DNA of 34,974 nt, from positions 1-34,974 of the forward strand of contig CALUTD010000021.1 in NCBI GenBank assembly GCA_944323625.1. The letters are read 5' to 3'. The DNA is from Candidatus Gastranaerophilales bacterium (GTDB lineage Bacteria; Cyanobacteriota; Vampirovibrionia; Gastranaerophilales; Gastranaerophilaceae). Each line of letters starts with the position of its first letter. Position 1 is the stretch's first letter. The position numbers and the translations under genes are program-made. Below the pieces are notes generated by a model that saw only the letters and a list, made by a program, of their open reading frames with translations, did no database searches and was not told the DNA's origin. Of the stretch, positions 9,187 through 16,425 are shown piece after piece.

Positions 9187-10722
9187 ATGACATCGGAAGC
9201 AAACAAAAGACAACCGTTTTTTTATGACATTACATTAAGAGACGGTAATCAGTCGCTTAAGAAACCATGGAATACATACGAAAAAGAACTTATATTTAAC
9301 CACCTTGTTGAACTTGGAATACAAGGCGTTGAAGTCGGATTTGCCGCAGCCTCGGAAATGGATTTTGAAGCTTGTTCAAAACTTGCTTCCGTGGCTCCCG
9401 ATAATATAGTAATATCCGCACTGGCAAGATGTGTAGAAAACGACATAATAAAAGCGGCAGAATCAATTAAAGCGGCTAATAAACGCAGAATTCACACATT
9501 TATTGCCATGAGTCCGTTTAATATGGAATATGTACTAAATAAAAAACCTTTAGAAGTAAGAAAACAGGCAATAGAAGCAGTACAATTCGCAAGAAAAACA
9601 ATAGGTGAAAACGCACAGGTGGAATTTTCGGTTGAACACTTCGGAGATTGCGGTGAAAATTTAGATTTTGTTATTGATACTCTCAAAGAGATAGTAAAAG
9701 CAGGTGCAGATGTTATAAATCTTCCAAACACAGTTGAACGAACAAGACCAAAAACCTTCGTTGATATGGTTGAAAGAGTATATAATGAATTACCAAAAGA
9801 TATTATTATTTCAGTACACAACCATAACGACCTTGGTATGGCAACTGCAACAACAGTAGAAAGCTATTTTGCCGGAGCATTGCAATTGGAATGCGCTCTA
9901 AATGGGTTAGGAGAGCGTGCAGGCAATACAAATTTATATGAAGTTGCAATTGCACTCCATAATTCAGGTGTTGAAACAGGTTTGAACCTTTCAAAAATTT
10001 ATGAACTCGCTTTGACTATATCAGATATGTCGGGCGTAAAAATATATGAAAAAGCACCGTTAATAGGACCAGAATCGCTTGCGCACAGAAGCGGAATACA
10101 TCAAGATGGCGCAATCAAAACAAAAGATATGCAAAAAGGCGCCTACAGACCGATTCATCCTTCTTTAATCGGCAGAAAAGATGACGAAAAACTCGGATTC
10201 ACTTCTCAATCAGGCAAAACCGCAATATTTGAAATAATATCGGAAGCAGGTTACCCGATTACACTTCAAGAGGCTCAAAGAATAGCCCCATGTGCAAAAG
10301 AAATAGCGGAAAAAATCGGTGAGCTTTCAACTAAAAATATTATTGATATCTATTATAAACAGGTATTTAACGTCCAAGGCGCATTCAAACTCTGTAAAAT
10401 GGATAAAATTGATAACGAAAATATGAACCTCCATTTCATGTACCACGATAAAGAATATGATATTCAAGTACTTGGTAACGGCCCTGTTGATGCTTGTATA
10501 AAAGCTATCCAAAAAGCAGGTTTTAACTGTGAATTACTTCACTATGAACAAAAAGCATTAAATGAGGAATTAATGGGTTCAGGTGCAACCGCTATGAGTA
10601 TTATGCACTTTAAAGCTCCTAACGGCCAAACAATAATATCAAGAGGCCGCGACGAAAACACCGTTAAAGCTAATATCAAAGCTATTTTCAACGGTCTGAA
10701 TATTATTGAAAACATGAAATAA
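9187..10722 (+). CDS. leuA: 2-isopropylmalate synthase
   Basis: LeuA condenses acetyl-CoA with 2-oxoisovalerate, the first committed step of leucine synthesis. The 511-residue protein has an HMGL-type TIM barrel (residues ~12-290) with YDITLRDGNQSL, FSVEHFGD and the metal-binding VHNHNDLGMATATT, then GLGERAGNTNL. The C-terminal LeuA allosteric domain (~400-510) includes VLGNGPVDACIKAIQ and SGATAMSIMHF, so leucine feedback is likely. The DGNQSLKKPW variant is not the most common form (DGEQSPG). Homocitrate or citramalate synthase is less likely because the C-terminal domain fits LeuA. It has a good AAGGAAGGCGG Shine-Dalgarno and stands alone, divergent from purB. Confidence 0.88.
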   Translation: MTSEANKRQPFFYDITLRDGNQSLKKPWNTYEKELIFNHLVELGIQGVEVGFAAASEMDFEACSKLASVAPDNIVISALARCVENDIIKAAESIKAANKRRIHTFIAMSPFNMEYVLNKKPLEVRKQAIEAVQFARKTIGENAQVEFSVEHFGDCGENLDFVIDTLKEIVKAGADVINLPNTVERTRPKTFVDMVERVYNELPKDIIISVHNHNDLGMATATTVESYFAGALQLECALNGLGERAGNTNLYEVAIALHNSGVETGLNLSKIYELALTISDMSGVKIYEKAPLIGPESLAHRSGIHQDGAIKTKDMQKGAYRPIHPSLIGRKDDEKLGFTSQSGKTAIFEIISEAGYPITLQEAQRIAPCAKEIAEKIGELSTKNIIDIYYKQVFNVQGAFKLCKMDKIDNENMNLHFMYHDKEYDIQVLGNGPVDACIKAIQKAGFNCELLHYEQKALNEELMGSGATAMSIMHFKAPNGQTIISRGRDENTVKANIKAIFNGLNIIENMK

Positions 10723-10746: not shown

Positions 10747-10775
10747 TGAAAAGTTTTACTAATTTCATATATAAT
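10747..10775 (+). promoter_or_regulatory. Candidate promoter of the restriction-modification operon
   Basis: A perfect TATAAT at 10770-10775 lies only 9 nt before the ATG at 10785, with a weak -35 (TGAAAA, 10747-10752). Transcription would start within a few bases of the start codon, and no Shine-Dalgarno is present, so the mRNA may be leaderless or nearly so. Confidence 0.5.
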
Positions 10776-10784
10776 AAATAAATT

Positions 10785-12641
10785 ATGATAGAGCAATATA
10801 CTGAAGATATAACATTAAAAGAAATGAAATGCTCAATTGGAGAAAATTCATTTGGGTATGTTTTTCCTCAGGGAGATATAGAATTTGTTGATAAAATTGA
10901 CAAAATACTAAAAAAAATAGGAGGAAAGCCAAAAGAATGCGAAATCGAGGATTATTCCTGTTATAACAGCGGAAAAGCAAAACCTGAGTATATCATTACT
11001 TTTAATGAAGATATTTCTACAATTATTGTTGTAGAATGCAAAAAGTCAATATTAAAACATTCTACATCCAATTTTAATCATCCTAAAGATTATGCGGTTG
11101 ATGGTGTATTGTATTATGCAAAGCACCTTAAACAGGAATATAATGTTATAGCTATTGCAGTAAGCGGAACAAAAAAAGATAACTTAAAAGTTAATACATA
11201 TTATTGGCAAAAAAATCAAAATAAATATACTGAACTGACTAAAGCAAGGGATATTATTTTAGAACCGCAAAATTATATCCATCTTATAAAAGGAAGCAAA
11301 CTAAGAAAAGAATATTCTCTTGACGAAATACGTGAAATAGCAATAATGATGCATAACTCTCTTCGGGAGATAAAAGTAACAGAAGCCCATAAGCCTATAT
11401 TTATTGCTGGAATATTGATAGCTTTAAATGATTCTGATTTTTGTAAAACATATTCTTCTTTAACTTCTTATAAACTTATCATACAAAATATACAAAATGC
11501 CATAGAAAATGTTTTATCTGAAAGTGATATTAAGAATAATAGAATAAACTACATCAAACAAGTATTTAAAACACTTCAAGATAACACTAAATTTTCAGAA
11601 ATACCCCTTGGGCATAAAAAATCCATAATTTGGTATATAGAACAATTAGAAATGAAAATAAAACCAATGATGGACTATGCAGACAGTACTATTGATGCAT
11701 TAGGTGTATTTTATCATGAATTTATTAAATACTCAGGAGGAGATGGAAGCGGACTCGGTATAGTACTTACTCCACAACATTTAACTGAATTTATGTGTGA
11801 TTTAGCAAATGTTAATAAAAATAGTAAAGTAGTTGATATATGCTGCGGTTCAGCTTCTTTCCTAGTTACTGCAATGAGTAAAATGTTTAAAAATGCCAAT
11901 CAGCAAGAAATAGAAAAAATAAGAACTAATGGTTTATTTGGAGTTGAATTTGACGATGGATTATATACACTTGCCGTTGCAAATATGATTATAAGAAAAG
12001 ACGGAAAATCAAATATTTATAAGGGTGATTGTTTTAATGAAGTAATTACAAAAAAATTAAAAGAGCAAAATATCAATATAGGACTTATTAACCCGCCATA
12101 TTCACAAAATGATAAAGAAGAACTCGAATTTACTGAACATCTTCTTGATATACTTGTCACCGGCGGTACCGGAGTAGTTGTAGTACCTATGAGTTGTGCT
12201 ATAGGTACAAAATTTAAAGCAACACGCGAAAGACTAATGAAAAAACATACTTTAAAAGCTGTATTTAGTATGCCTGATGATATTTTTTATCCTACCGGAA
12301 CAAATGTATGCGTTATGGTTTGGCAAGCTCATGTACCTCATGATACTTCTATAGAAACATATTTTGGATATTGCAAAGATGATGGTTTTGTAAAAAGAAA
12401 AAAACTGGGACGTATTGATGCTCATTCAAAATGGCAAAAAATAGAAAAAACCTGGCTTGAATTATACAGAAATAAAGAAATAAAAGATGGATTTTCAGCA
12501 CGACATAGTGTTAATTATAATGATGAATGGTTATGTGAAGCATATATGAAAACTGATTATTCAAAGTTAACACAAACCGATTTTGAACAATCTGTAAGAG
12601 ATTACCTATCATATTTAGTTCAGAATGGTGGTACAAAATGA
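10785..12641 (+). CDS. BcgI-like type IIB restriction-modification subunit A (nuclease-N6 methylase fusion)
   Basis: One 618-residue chain carries both cutting and methylating activities. The N-terminal ~160 residues show a PD-(D/E)XK-type core, with PE at 67-68 and ECK at 84-86 (IIVVECKKS). After a helical linker comes an N6-adenine methyltransferase of the HsdM/gamma type: LTPQH at ~328-332, the SAM site VVDICCGSASFL (349-360) and the catalytic NPPYS (436-440). Length and domain order match BcgI subunit A (about 640 residues) rather than type I HsdM, which lacks a nuclease. No helicase HsdR gene is nearby. Known BcgI-type enzymes cut on both sides of a bipartite site. The stop overlaps the specificity gene (ATGA), so the two are coupled. 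Confidence 0.85.
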   Translation: MIEQYTEDITLKEMKCSIGENSFGYVFPQGDIEFVDKIDKILKKIGGKPKECEIEDYSCYNSGKAKPEYIITFNEDISTIIVVECKKSILKHSTSNFNHPKDYAVDGVLYYAKHLKQEYNVIAIAVSGTKKDNLKVNTYYWQKNQNKYTELTKARDIILEPQNYIHLIKGSKLRKEYSLDEIREIAIMMHNSLREIKVTEAHKPIFIAGILIALNDSDFCKTYSSLTSYKLIIQNIQNAIENVLSESDIKNNRINYIKQVFKTLQDNTKFSEIPLGHKKSIIWYIEQLEMKIKPMMDYADSTIDALGVFYHEFIKYSGGDGSGLGIVLTPQHLTEFMCDLANVNKNSKVVDICCGSASFLVTAMSKMFKNANQQEIEKIRTNGLFGVEFDDGLYTLAVANMIIRKDGKSNIYKGDCFNEVITKKLKEQNINIGLINPPYSQNDKEELEFTEHLLDILVTGGTGVVVVPMSCAIGTKFKATRERLMKKHTLKAVFSMPDDIFYPTGTNVCVMVWQAHVPHDTSIETYFGYCKDDGFVKRKKLGRIDAHSKWQKIEKTWLELYRNKEIKDGFSARHSVNYNDEWLCEAYMKTDYSKLTQTDFEQSVRDYLSYLVQNGGTK

Positions 12642-13612
12642 GATTAAAAAACTTTTTAATCGAAGATATTTTTGATGAAATCAACATTGCCATAAGCTTA
12701 GATAAACAATATTTAAACAAAGGTAAAATACCTTTTGTTGGCAGAAGTTCATCAAATAATGCATTACAATGTTATGTTGAAGCACCTGAAAATTATTTAA
12801 CTAAAGGTAATTGTATTACTATTGGTATGGTTGGAACTTTTAAAGCATTTTGGCAACCTGAAACATTTGTAGCCAGCCAAAATATTCTAGTTTTGAGGAA
12901 CAAAAAACTTAATAAATATTCAGCACTTTACATTTGTTCTGTTCTAAATTTAACAGTAAAAGAAAAATTTTCGTATAATCGTCCAATACAAAAAAATAAA
13001 TTTATTAAAGAAATTATTAAACTTCCTGAAAAAAATAATATGCCTGATTTTGATTATATGGAAAATCATATAAAAAAAATTTATAATAAACAGTTAAGTT
13101 TAATTGAAACAAAAAATAAAAATTTAGAAATACCCACTCTAAATACAGAAAAATGGAAAGAATATAAATTATCTAATTTATTTAATGTCTCTGTTTCAAA
13201 AGATGATAATCTTCAAAACAGCAATTTAGGTGAAACTTTATATATAGCCTCATCAGCAGAAAATAATGGAGTAACTGGACACGTTGATTCAAAAGCTTCT
13301 CAAAAATCAAACACAATGACTATTGCTAGAAACGGTTCTGTTGGTTCTGTGTTTTATCAACCTATTCCATATTGCGCATCTCCCGATGATATAAGAATTC
13401 TTACTCCAAAATTTAAATTAAATGTTTACATTGCTTTGTTTCTTAAAACAGTAATTGAAAAAGAAAAATTTAAATACGCATACGGGCGAAAACTGGGAAC
13501 TAAAAGAATTGAAAACTTAGTTATTAAACTTCCTTATAAAGATGAAAAAAATCCTGATTTTCAATATATGGAAAATTATATTAAATCTCTTCCTTATGCA
13601 GATTTAATTTAA
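12638..13612 (+). CDS. BcgI-like restriction-modification specificity subunit B (two target-recognition domains)
   Basis: This 324-residue protein has two tandem halves of the HsdS/BcgIB type. Half one (1 to ~165) has FVGRSSSNNAL, ITIGMVGTFKAFWQPETFVASQNI and ends in LPEKNNMPDFDYMENHIKKIY. Half two (~171-324) has LYIASSAENNGVTGHVD, MTIARNGSVGSVFYQPIPYCASPDD and ends in LPYKDEKNPDFQYMENYIKSL. The two LP..(N/K)..PDF(D/Q)YMEN(H/Y)IK segments are the conserved spacer helices, and each half should read one part of a bipartite site. Length is close to BcgIB (about 340). It overlaps subunit A by four bases and converges on the next gene with a 4-bp gap. Confidence 0.88.
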   Translation: MRLKNFLIEDIFDEINIAISLDKQYLNKGKIPFVGRSSSNNALQCYVEAPENYLTKGNCITIGMVGTFKAFWQPETFVASQNILVLRNKKLNKYSALYICSVLNLTVKEKFSYNRPIQKNKFIKEIIKLPEKNNMPDFDYMENHIKKIYNKQLSLIETKNKNLEIPTLNTEKWKEYKLSNLFNVSVSKDDNLQNSNLGETLYIASSAENNGVTGHVDSKASQKSNTMTIARNGSVGSVFYQPIPYCASPDDIRILTPKFKLNVYIALFLKTVIEKEKFKYAYGRKLGTKRIENLVIKLPYKDEKNPDFQYMENYIKSLPYADLI

Positions 13613-13616
13613 TAGT

Positions 13617-14337
13617 TTATAATTTCAATGGATAGTCATCCTTGAATTCCCAGCCGTCAAACTGAACAAGTTTTGAACAATTAAAACCACTTTCTTTACA
13701 TAATCTTATTAACTTATCTCTGTCCGAGATTCTTTCGGACGAACTACCCACATAAAAATGAGGAGAATCACGCTTAACCTCTAATATTCCAAATGCAAAT
13801 ATATCTCTGCCAAGTTTATTAGGTCCTTTTTCTCCATTAGTATCATAATAATATTGACTAAATACATCAAGCGTCCAAAAAAAAGTTCCGTCCTGTAAAT
13901 AAACTACGACATCAGAATATATTCTATCTTTAAGTTCAAACTCCAAAGAATTATAGTAGTCTGTATTATCACTGATATAACCGATACTTGTATAATTCAA
14001 ATATTTTAAATAATTTCTCTCTATAAACGCTTTAACAACTTCAGGGTCATCACAACGTTCTTCAGTATACCAGTCATACACAGGAATACCTTGCTCTATT
14101 TCTGCAAGTCTTATGGCATTTGTCATTGTGGAATAAAATTTTTTCAATTTTGCTGCCGTCTCTGTTTTTTTATGATTTGCCATTACTACAGGAACTGTTA
14201 TTGCCGCTATAATTCCTATAACAACAAGAGTAATTAATACTTCCGCAAGTGTAAAAGAATATTTTATATTAGAGAAAGAGTTTTCTAAATTTAGTCTGTT
14301 TCTACCCCCCCCCGTGGCAGTTATTCGATTTATTCAT
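13617..14337 (-). CDS. Prepilin-like protein, start codon out of frame through a 9-G tract (switch locus 1)
   Basis: From the ATG at 14337 (AAGGAGGA upstream) translation reads M-N-K-S-N-N-C-H-G-G-G and stops at TAG straight after nine G (14305-14313). With eight G the frame would continue as RNRLNLENSFSNIKYSFTLAEVLITLVVIG, a prepilin cleavage site and helix, and run unbroken to 13617 (239 residues). As sequenced, only the part from MANHKK (14183 to 13617, 188 residues) has its own ATG, and it lacks most of the helix. The globular part has the family loop DTNGEKGPNKLGRD and ends DGWEFKDDYP. No in-frame start lies between tract and helix. Phase OFF is the simplest reading; frameshifting at GGG-TAG is an alternative. 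The XRE gene lies just upstream. Confidence 0.75.
14305..14313 (-). repeat. Poly-G contingency tract, 9 G (locus 1)
   Basis: Nine consecutive G on the coding strand lie 25 bases into the prepilin gene. Eight or eleven would restore the frame to the prepilin helix. In an AT-rich genome an unbroken G run of this length inside a coding leader, repeated at two homologous loci, points to selection for slippage. Confidence 0.85.
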
Positions 14338-14358
14338 AGTTATCCTCCTTTTTTATCT

Positions 14359-14388
14359 ATACTATCATATATTCCCTGTTTTTGACAA
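14359..14388 (-). promoter_or_regulatory. Prepilin-family promoter (locus 1)
   Basis: TTGTCA (14388-14383), an 18-bp spacer and TAGTAT (14364-14359) lie 21 nt before the start. The spacer ends in GGGAATATATGA, so the -10 reads TATATGATAGTAT with an extended TGN. The same layout stands before the other three prepilin genes. Confidence 0.75.
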
Positions 14389-14395
14389 ATACAAA

Positions 14396-14608
14396 CTAAT
14401 AAATCAAATCATTCACGGTAATTTCAAGTTCTTTTGATATTTTATAAAGTACATAAATACTCGGATTTACTTTTTCATTTTCAATTTTACATATATATTG
14501 CTGGCTTATCTCGGTTAATTCCGCCAGTTTATCCTGAGAAATTCGTTTTTTCGCCCTTATTTGTCTTAAATTGTCGGCAATATTTTTATTTAATTGTTTA
14601 TTATCCAT
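14396..14608 (-). CDS. XRE-family transcriptional regulator
   Basis: The 70-residue product is a single lambda-repressor-like helix-turn-helix domain: NLRQIRAKKRISQDKLAELT, then SQQYICKIENEKVNPSIYVLYKISKEL. It has no sensor domain, like many small DNA-binding autoregulators. The start is taken at MDNKQL; the frame further up begins with a TTG. There is no Shine-Dalgarno, and TATAAA (14623-14618) lies 9 nt before the ATG. It sits between two prepilin genes: its end overlaps the -35 region of locus 1 and its start is back to back with the promoter at 14628-14657. That makes control of the prepilin genes a reasonable guess. Confidence 0.88.
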   Translation of the reverse strand: MDNKQLNKNIADNLRQIRAKKRISQDKLAELTEISQQYICKIENEKVNPSIYVLYKISKELEITVNDLIY

Positions 14609-14699: not shown

Positions 14700-15500
14700 A
14701 TGAAAAAAACTTTTACTCTATCGGAAGTACTGATTACACTTGTTATTATAGGTATAATTGCAGCTATAACAGTACCTGTTGTAATGGCCGAATATCAAAA
14801 GAAAGCTTACGTGACTAAACTAAAAAAAGCTTATTCTTCGATACAATCGGGCTTTAAACTCAGTATGGCAAACTCGGGAGTATTTGAATTGGCCGATTCT
14901 GATTTATTTGACGATATAAGAACCGACCCGGGTACTTCCAGTTCAACATCTTGCTCTATAGGACAAGTGAACTATGCTTTTAAAAGTATATGTATTGACC
15001 TTACTAATGAGTTTGCAAGGATTTTTAATGCACAAATAAGTAAAACACCTAAAAATTATATAATTAAATATTTTGATAAAAGCGGACAATCTGATATGTC
15101 AAATAGACCATTATTAATATTTCCTGACGGCATGTTTGCAATAATACAGATTTTTTATTTTGAAAAAACTGAATTCGAATGTCAAAGGGTTTTAGATTAT
15201 GGAGGCAATAAATCAGCTTGCATAAAGCTTGGAAGTGTTACTATTGATATAAATGGAGATAAGGGGCCAAATACATACGGAAAAGATGTATATGCTTTTT
15301 CTATAGGGAATAACGGTTTAAGGCCGGTAGGAAGCATAGAAGATGCTTTGTCTATGAATGTAAGACCATTATCATCAAATGGGAACTACTGGAAAACTTC
15401 CGGTGATTGCGGAAAAGAAAATCTTACGAAAGGCGGTGTTAAAATGGGATATCGATGTGCTGCAAGAATCATGGACAATGGTTGGGAAATAGACTACTAA
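14700..15500 (+). CDS. Prepilin-like protein (type IV pilin / pseudopilin N-terminus), intact
   Basis: The 266-residue product starts MKKTFTLSEVLITLVIIGII, a very short leader followed by the conserved Glu-5-type prepilin helix, so a prepilin peptidase should process it and it should assemble through a type IV pilus or type II-like machine. The globular domain carries DINGDKGPNTYGKDVYAFSI (a possible metal-binding loop) around residue 180 and ends CAARIMDNGWEIDY, as in the neighbouring prepilin genes. It has several Cys. Unlike the other three copies it has no G tract and is in frame. AAAGGA lies 8 nt upstream. Whether it is a structural pilin or a minor one cannot be told, since no assembly gene is in the window. 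Confidence 0.88.
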   Translation: MKKTFTLSEVLITLVIIGIIAAITVPVVMAEYQKKAYVTKLKKAYSSIQSGFKLSMANSGVFELADSDLFDDIRTDPGTSSSTSCSIGQVNYAFKSICIDLTNEFARIFNAQISKTPKNYIIKYFDKSGQSDMSNRPLLIFPDGMFAIIQIFYFEKTEFECQRVLDYGGNKSACIKLGSVTIDINGDKGPNTYGKDVYAFSIGNNGLRPVGSIEDALSMNVRPLSSNGNYWKTSGDCGKENLTKGGVKMGYRCAARIMDNGWEIDY

Positions 15501-15608: not shown

Positions 15609-16425
15609 TTACCAAGGATAATCATCTTTTATTTGCCAGCCGTCAATAGCAATTACGGCCGCGCAGGCCGTTCCGACTCCGGGGCGATTACCGCCGAAAT
15701 CACTTGCTTTTTTATTACATCCTCGCACTAAACTGGCACTTAAAAGTTCTTTTCTAGAGAAAAATGCATGAGCAGGCCCGCAATTATGGGCTCCACCCGG
15801 ATAAAGCCCGTCTTTACCCGGATAAATTTTGGCTCCGCCGCAAAAAGAAAAACTTGAACTGTATATATAAAACGAAAAAATATCCCGTCCTAGTTTGTTT
15901 GGTTTTTTACTGCCGTTTATATCTACTATGTATGATAAAATATTTGTTCCGTTAATTTTGTTTATACCTAAAATCATACCGTTATTCAGAACAAGAGAAT
16001 ATGGAACAGACTCTGTTATTTTATTACCGGCTAAATCGTAATATCCGTTAAATCCATCTGTTACCCAGCAGCCATCTGACATTTCGGTACATTCTTTTAC
16101 AAAAGAAAAATAAGGTTTAATATATTTTTGTCCGTAATCTTTTGTAGAAAGTGATAAATCCCAATCGGCAATATTACCCCAATCTAATAATGCTTTATTT
16201 GCCCCTTGAGATACAATTGAATAAGCAGCTTGGAGTTTAGATACAGTTTCTTTTTTCTGAAAAGATATTAATAGATTAGAAATTGTTATAGCTGCAATTA
16301 TACCTATAATAACAAGGTAATTAATACCTCTGCAAGGGTAAAAGAATCTTTTTTATAATAGAAGGAGTTTCCAAAATTTAATCTGTTTCTACCCCCCCCC
16401 CGTGGCAGTTAAAAAGTTTATCCAT
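15609..16425 (-). pseudogene. Prepilin-like gene with a 10-G tract and a frameshift (locus 2)
   Basis: From the ATG at 16425 (GGAG upstream) the frame reads M-D-K-L-F-N-C-H-G-G-G and then, after ten G, ends at a TAA within five codons. Eight G would give RNRLNFGNSFYYKKDSFTLAEV. A second lesion follows: ITLL runs into TAG because one base is missing near 16316 (AACAAGGTAATT against AACAAGAGTAATT in locus 1). Beyond it the frame is open again, from IGIIAAIT through VDINGSKKPNKLGRD to DGWQIKDDYPW, and an ATG at 16082 starts a 157-residue tail. One change of tract length cannot repair it. It is a pseudogene, or a silent donor for recombination. Confidence 0.8.
16392..16401 (-). repeat. Poly-G contingency tract, 10 G (locus 2)
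   Basis: Ten consecutive G on the coding strand occupy the same place in the leader as at locus 1. The count differs from the other two loci, which suggests length instability. Eight or eleven would be in frame to the prepilin helix. Confidence 0.8.

What the first reader, a model, noticed from the sequence alone, without database searches (positions are those of the whole stretch)
10785..13612. BcgI-like type IIB restriction-modification system
A PD-(D/E)XK nuclease and an N6 methylase in one 618-residue chain, coupled by ATGA overlap to a two-TRD specificity subunit, match the rare BcgI layout, in which DNA is cut on both sides of a bipartite site. The two recognition halves differ, so the target should be an asymmetric bipartite sequence that may be new.
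Basis: partly seen in the sequence, partly recalled or inferred. Interest (0 to 1): 0.65.

Follow-up and report, generated by a model that had tools for sequence, protein, structure and literature searches.

The report
BcgI-like type IIB restriction-modification system
The two genes encode a DNA-cutting-and-methylating enzyme and its separate DNA-recognition subunit, a member of the known BcgI (type IIB) kind of bacterial phage defence, whose target sequence is still unknown; the finding is sound but mostly ordinary.

Summary
Window 10785-12641 encodes a 618-aa RM protein and 12638-13612 a 324-aa S protein, overlapping by ATGA. The RM protein has an N-terminal nuclease-like domain (PE67-68, E84-C-K86) and a gamma-class N6-adenine methyltransferase (DICCG, NPPY). 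The S protein has two different target recognition domains (TRDs, 34% identical), each ending in a short helix. PE, E-x-K and NPPY are invariant in 38 aligned relatives and in the pair on the phage phi-42 record, the phage whose BcgI-like Sau42I system is in the literature; window RM is 31% and S 32% identical to that pair. No helicase belongs to the locus; the genome's HsdR lies on another contig behind its own S gene. Verdict: new member of a known kind (BcgI-type IIB). Cutting on both sides of the site is inferred, not tested, and the target is unknown. Relatives add some interest. RM genes 55-82% identical to this one occur in many phyla and switched about 9-11 times between 'RM + two-TRD S' and 'RM fused to one TRD' (HaeIV-like). 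The window's TRD2 class also occurs as the fused single TRD and in slot 1; its TRD1 class also occurs in slot 2. Sequencing the methylome of a fused relative would therefore reveal half of this enzyme's target.

The parts
10785..12641 (+). RM gene: PD-(D/E)XK nuclease + gamma-class N6-adenine methyltransferase, 618 aa
10785..11294 (+). N-terminal nuclease-like domain (residues 1-170)
   Evidence: alignment and AlphaFold2 model; matched from residue 1 to BsaXI RM
10983..10988 (+). PE (residues 67-68), nuclease motif II
   Evidence: invariant in 38/38 relatives and in the phi-42 RM protein
11034..11042 (+). E-C-K (residues 84-86), nuclease motif III (ExK)
   Evidence: E84 and K86 invariant
11835..11849 (+). 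DICCG (residues 351-355), AdoMet-binding motif I
   Evidence: invariant in 38/38
12090..12101 (+). NPPY (residues 436-439), N6-adenine methyltransferase catalytic motif IV
   Evidence: invariant
12638..12641 (+). ATGA overlap of RM stop and S start
   Evidence: sequence; the same overlap is seen in about 10 of 51 split relatives, others use different overlaps
12638..13612 (+). S gene: specificity subunit with two TRDs, 324 aa
12644..13033 (+). TRD1 (about residues 3-132)
   Evidence: AlphaFold2 model, mean pLDDT 91; TRD clustering
13049..13087 (+). CR1 helix (residues 138-150), first copy of the internal repeat
   Evidence: 58-nt direct repeat D1 at 13043-13100
13157..13543 (+). TRD2 (about residues 174-302)
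   Evidence: 67-74% identical to the single TRD of fused relatives L029/L060/L062 and to slot 2 of L044
13559..13588 (+). CR2 helix (residues 308-317), second copy of the internal repeat
   Evidence: second copy of D1 at 13553-13610, 72% identical

Best explanation
This is a complete, probably functional BcgI-type (type IIB, also IIG/IIC) restriction-modification system in a gut Gastranaerophilales (Melainabacteria) genome. Two RM chains would assemble on one S chain, each docked on one TRD. The S chain reads a bipartite target, one half-site per TRD, with a short spacer set by its short CR helices. Each RM chain would methylate one adenine in its half-site, and hemimethylated host sites would be re-methylated. 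On DNA with several unmethylated sites the N-terminal nuclease domains would cut on both sides of each site, excising a short fragment. Shown here: gene layout, domain composition, conserved motifs, two different TRDs, near-full-length homology to the pair on the phi-42 record. Inferred from BcgI, BsaXI and Sau42I: stoichiometry, two-sided cutting, methyl-adenine, need for two sites. Unknown: the target sequence.
For: layout and profiles; PE, ExK, NPPY invariant in 38 relatives and in the phi-42 RM protein; 31% over 588 aa, E 8e-76, and 32% over 294 aa, E 6e-37, to the two proteins of phage phi-42 record X94423, described there as a restriction modification system; a BcgI-like system Sau42I from phi-42 is cited; S model: two TRDs each followed by a short helix; matches type I HsdS and BsaXI S, 8w0p; RM model matches type I HsdM and BsaXI RM; no helicase at the locus, separate type I system elsewhere; dN/dS 0.10 for RM, 0.18 for S, 0.08 for the nuclease part.
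Against: No biochemical or methylome data. The window has PE-X15-ECK, three residues longer than the PE-X12-ExK reported for BcgI (PMC9159934) and seen in the phi-42 protein. A counterpart of BsaXI's fourth essential residue (E73, PMC11997821) was not identified. The nuclease domain has no Pfam hit and no sequence-profile hit in the PDB.
Confidence: 0.9

Rival explanations
1. A modification-only (methylase) system: the N-terminal domain is a decayed nuclease remnant and the pair acts as an epigenetic methyltransferase.
For: No restriction activity is shown; the fourth residue essential in BsaXI (E73) has no identified counterpart.
Against: PE, E84 and K86 are invariant in 38 relatives and in the phi-42 RM protein; the nuclease part is under purifying selection like the rest (dN/dS 0.08, dS saturated).
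Confidence: 0.06
2. The M and S part of a type I system whose HsdR acts in trans from elsewhere in the genome.
For: A type I HsdR gene start lies on contig C36 of the same genome, and HsdM and HsdS homology is real.
Against: That HsdR gene lies behind its own two-TRD S gene, and a type I HsdM with a partial S is on C34; the window RM carries its own conserved nuclease domain, which HsdM lacks, and matches type IIG models over most of its length.
Confidence: 0.02
3. A type IIG enzyme that cuts on one side only, despite the two-TRD S subunit.
For: Cleavage geometry cannot be read from sequence.
Against: Characterised enzymes with an RM chain and a separate two-TRD S chain (BcgI, BaeI, CspCI, BsaXI, NgoAVIII) cut on both sides (PMC3874165 Table 4).
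Confidence: 0.02

Closest known systems
Sau42I of Staphylococcus phage phi-42 (record X94423; BcgI-like system cited as Dempsey et al. 2005)
   Same: Overlapping RM (639 aa) and S (337 aa) genes; 31% and 32% identity; PE, ExK and NPPY conserved; two TRDs.
   Different: PE-X12-EDK against PE-X15-ECK; the region before residue 61 did not align; different TRDs, so presumably a different target. The record itself calls both products hypothetical; linking it to the name Sau42I rests on the phage name.
BcgI (Bacillus coagulans), type IIB archetype
   Same: RM chain plus separate two-TRD S chain, N-terminal nuclease with PE...ExK, gamma-class NPPY methylase (PMC4081073, PMC9159934, PMC3874165).
BsaXI (type IIB, structures 8w0p, 8w2p, 8w2q)
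   Same: RM fold matched from residue 1 (Z 26.7); S fold matched.
   Different: BsaXI RM is about 300 residues longer with knob and paddle domains; S is 476 aa with longer CR regions (PMC9159934, PMC11997821).
HaeIV-type single-chain RM with one TRD
   Same: About 15 of the window's closest RM relatives have this layout (RM fused to one TRD, 718-808 aa), some with a TRD 67-70% identical to window TRD2.
   Different: The window itself keeps S as a separate two-TRD protein.

Membership tests
BcgI-type (type IIB) restriction-modification | One RM chain with N-terminal PD-(D/E)XK nuclease and gamma-class (NPPY) adenine methyltransferase | tested here: met
   PE/ExK and NPPY invariant, type IIG profile match over residues 65-615
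BcgI-type (type IIB) restriction-modification | Separate specificity subunit with two tandem TRDs | tested here: met
   Two Methylase_S stretches, AlphaFold2 model, PADLOC Specificity_II
BcgI-type (type IIB) restriction-modification | No separate HsdR helicase-nuclease serving the system | tested here: met
   Flanks are a LeuA-like synthase and pilin-like genes; the genome's HsdR is on another contig behind its own S gene
BcgI-type (type IIB) restriction-modification | Sequence homology of both subunits to a BcgI-like system reported in the literature | tested here: met
   31% over 588 aa and 32% over 294 aa to the phi-42 pair (citation of Sau42I)
BcgI-type (type IIB) restriction-modification | Direct homology to BcgI A and B chains | not tested
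   BcgI sequences not in the collections searched
BcgI-type (type IIB) restriction-modification | Double-strand cuts on both sides of a bipartite site | not testable with these tools
   needs biochemistry
BcgI-type (type IIB) restriction-modification | 2 RM : 1 S assembly | not testable with these tools
   needs biochemistry; no complex prediction offered
Type I restriction-modification | HsdR with helicase domain together with HsdM and HsdS | tested here: not met
   No HsdR at the locus; RM has its own nuclease domain

The most novel reading that the evidence does not exclude
In this RM clade the enzyme repeatedly toggles between a two-chain form with two different TRDs (asymmetric target) and a single-chain form with one TRD (presumably a homodimer with a palindromic target), while the same TRD classes move between slot 1, slot 2 and the fused position. 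The clade would then be a natural switchboard between symmetric and asymmetric targets, and TRD specificities could be read from the fused members and transferred to the split ones.
Probability: 0.55. Interest if true: 0.4.

Novelty: new member of a known kind. Interest (0 to 1): 0.28.

Why it matters
It adds a BcgI-type system, with a target that may be new, to an uncultured gut lineage (Gastranaerophilales), for which the library search found no restriction-modification paper. More usefully, its relatives give a way to decode specificity: window TRD2 is 67-70% identical to the lone TRD of single-chain relatives in Intestinimonas, Flavonifractor, Blautia and a Synergistaceae MAG. A 59%-identical TRD swap in BsaXI kept its specificity (PMC9159934). 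One methylome of such a relative should therefore give half of this enzyme's target.

Tried and rejected
Residue-level match of the nuclease domain to solved structures by sequence profile: no hit even at E=10, so the nuclease assignment rests on motif conservation, the phi-42 protein and the model. Empty-site comparison: purB-leuA synteny is kept in most of the genus (leuA in all 41 genomes), but homology ends within about 20 bases of the leuA stop in all 29 relatives compared, so no clean empty site or insertion ends could be read. Promoter and terminator: TATAAT at 10770-10775 with a poor -35, but promoter-like matches in the region are no more than chance (18 found, 21 expected). Phase-variable inversion of TRDs: no second S gene or strong inverted repeat near the S gene; only the 58-nt CR direct repeat (72%) was found. 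BcgI paper PMC3592470 not held. Locus L138 (another staphylococcal phage record annotated bcgIA/bcgIB) was fetched but not used further, since the shorter phi-42 record sufficed.

Full report
WHAT IS THERE. Upstream is a LeuA/HMGL-type synthase (9187-10722), 62 bases away; downstream, on the other strand, is a pilin-like gene (13617-14183).

THE RM PROTEIN. Pfam sees only N6_Mtase; PADLOC matches a type IIG restriction enzyme-methyltransferase model over residues 65-615 at 2e-95. Aligning 38 close relatives shows P67, E68, E84, C85, K86, D351, C354-G355 and N436-P-P-Y439 invariant. AlphaFold2 (mean pLDDT 84) gives an N-terminal domain in which E68 starts strand 69-73 and E84/K86 end strand 79-86, followed by helix 104-115 and strand 120-127, the order expected of a PD-(D/E)XK core, then a helical connector and the methyltransferase. 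Structure search finds type I HsdM chains for residues 175-600 and the type IIB enzyme BsaXI from residue 1. Coordinates of the model were not inspected, so active-site geometry is inferred from sequence and strand order.

THE S PROTEIN. Two Methylase_S stretches. The model (mean pLDDT 91) shows two TRDs, each ending in a short helix of 10-13 residues (138-150, 308-317), much shorter than the coiled coils of type I HsdS (comparison from general knowledge). Nearest folds are type I HsdS proteins and BsaXI S. TRD1 and TRD2 are 34% identical, within the range of other two-TRD relatives (19-45%).

COMPARISON WITH A REPORTED SYSTEM. The two proteins encoded by phage phi-42 record X94423 ('restriction modification system') are 31% (588 aa, E 8e-76) and 32% (294 aa, E 6e-37) identical to the window's. 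A BcgI-like system, Sau42I, from phi-42 is cited in the literature; equating it with this record rests on the phage name. The phi-42 protein has PE-X12-EDK, the spacing quoted for BcgI (PMC9159934); the window has PE-X15-ECK. BsaXI's essential residues are E73, D90, E105 and K107 (PMC11997821). By spacing and motif D90, E105 and K107 would correspond to E68, E84 and K86; E73's counterpart was not identified.

NOT A TYPE I SYSTEM. The genome has a type I HsdR gene start on contig C36 behind its own two-TRD S gene, and a 502-aa HsdM with a partial S on C34. These are separate from the window system.

DISTRIBUTION. A peptide-pattern scan of one genome per species fetched 64 relatives, mostly 55-82% identical, in Treponema, Lachnospiraceae, Oscillospiraceae, Sulfurimonas, Helicobacteraceae, Synergistaceae, Alphaproteobacteria and others (a lower bound). 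The nearest is another Gastranaerophilales genome, L044, the same locus as L067 in genome G025 of the window's genus (81%); it sits next to a glutamyl-tRNA synthetase-like gene, not next to leuA. In the genus 3 of 41 genomes have a close relative, with more distant ones in several others; in the phylum 6 of 292 match the type IIG model at E<=1e-40. This pattern indicates horizontal transfer. The organism label is an inference from the L044/L067 match.

SPLIT AND FUSED ARCHITECTURES. In 15 of 62 rows of the RM tree the RM protein continues into one TRD (718-808 aa) and no separate S was found; most others have a separate S gene. The tree needs 11 changes of state, at least 9 of them forced by well-supported branches (10 when truncated or doubtful rows are left out). 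Examples: L049 split and L052 fused are sisters; so are L007 split and L016 fused. The tree was a quick one under a simple model, so counts are approximate. HaeIV is a characterised single-chain, one-TRD enzyme with a symmetric target (PMC3874165).

TRD MOBILITY. Clustering TRDs at 50% identity puts window TRD2 with L044 slot 2, L058 slot 1 and the fused TRDs of L029, L030, L060 and L062; window TRD1 clusters with L044 slot 1, L056 slot 1 and L034 slot 2. For L060 the TRD (69-70%) is more alike than the RM (58%), pointing to TRD exchange between systems. A 58-nt direct repeat over the two CR helices, 510 bases apart (72% identical), is the kind of repeat proposed to let TRDs move between slots (DOMO, PMC3077401, shown there also for a type IIG S gene). 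So TRD movement itself is known.

MECHANISM. Best explanation: a BcgI-type complex (2 RM: 1 S) that maintains m6A at a bipartite target and cuts on both sides of unmethylated targets. Layout, domains, motifs and homology are shown here; stoichiometry, chemistry and cut geometry are inferred from BcgI, BsaXI and Sau42I. dN/dS against L044 is 0.10 (RM), 0.18 (S) and 0.08 (nuclease part), suggesting all parts are kept working, though dS is saturated.

VERDICT. New member of a known kind. A target that is new is plausible and untested. The more interesting point is the clade's repeated switching between split and fused forms, which makes half of this enzyme's target readable from a cultured relative.

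Noticed in passing
window 13617-14183 (-), also 14700-15500 (+) and 15609-16082 (-): Pilin-like proteins with a type IV prepilin-type N-terminal helix (FTLAEVLITL...) and a conserved GPNKLGRD.F region. The 13617-14183 protein has 92 matches in this 2-Mb genome, 53 in G025 and 40 in G008, but 0-9 in the other 38 genomes of the genus; many other genera of the family also carry many copies. A large expansion of unknown purpose.
   Followed up: partly
window 13617-14399 (-): The N-terminal pilin helix is in frame upstream of the listed ATG (238-aa open frame), but no ATG precedes it in that frame; it may use another start codon or be a start-less copy.
   Followed up: no
immediately downstream of leuA-like gene, about 10723: purB-leuA order is conserved across most of the genus, but what follows leuA differs from the window in all relatives compared: a variable spot, here holding the RM system.
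   Followed up: partly
L042:7815-8387: A relative with a separate S gene holding only one TRD (191 aa): a third architecture besides two-TRD S and fused single TRD.
   Followed up: no
G000 contigs C34 (L133) and C36 (L132): Pieces of a separate type I system: HsdM with a partial S on C34; two-TRD S, small genes and an HsdR start on C36. Probably one locus split by assembly.
   Followed up: no
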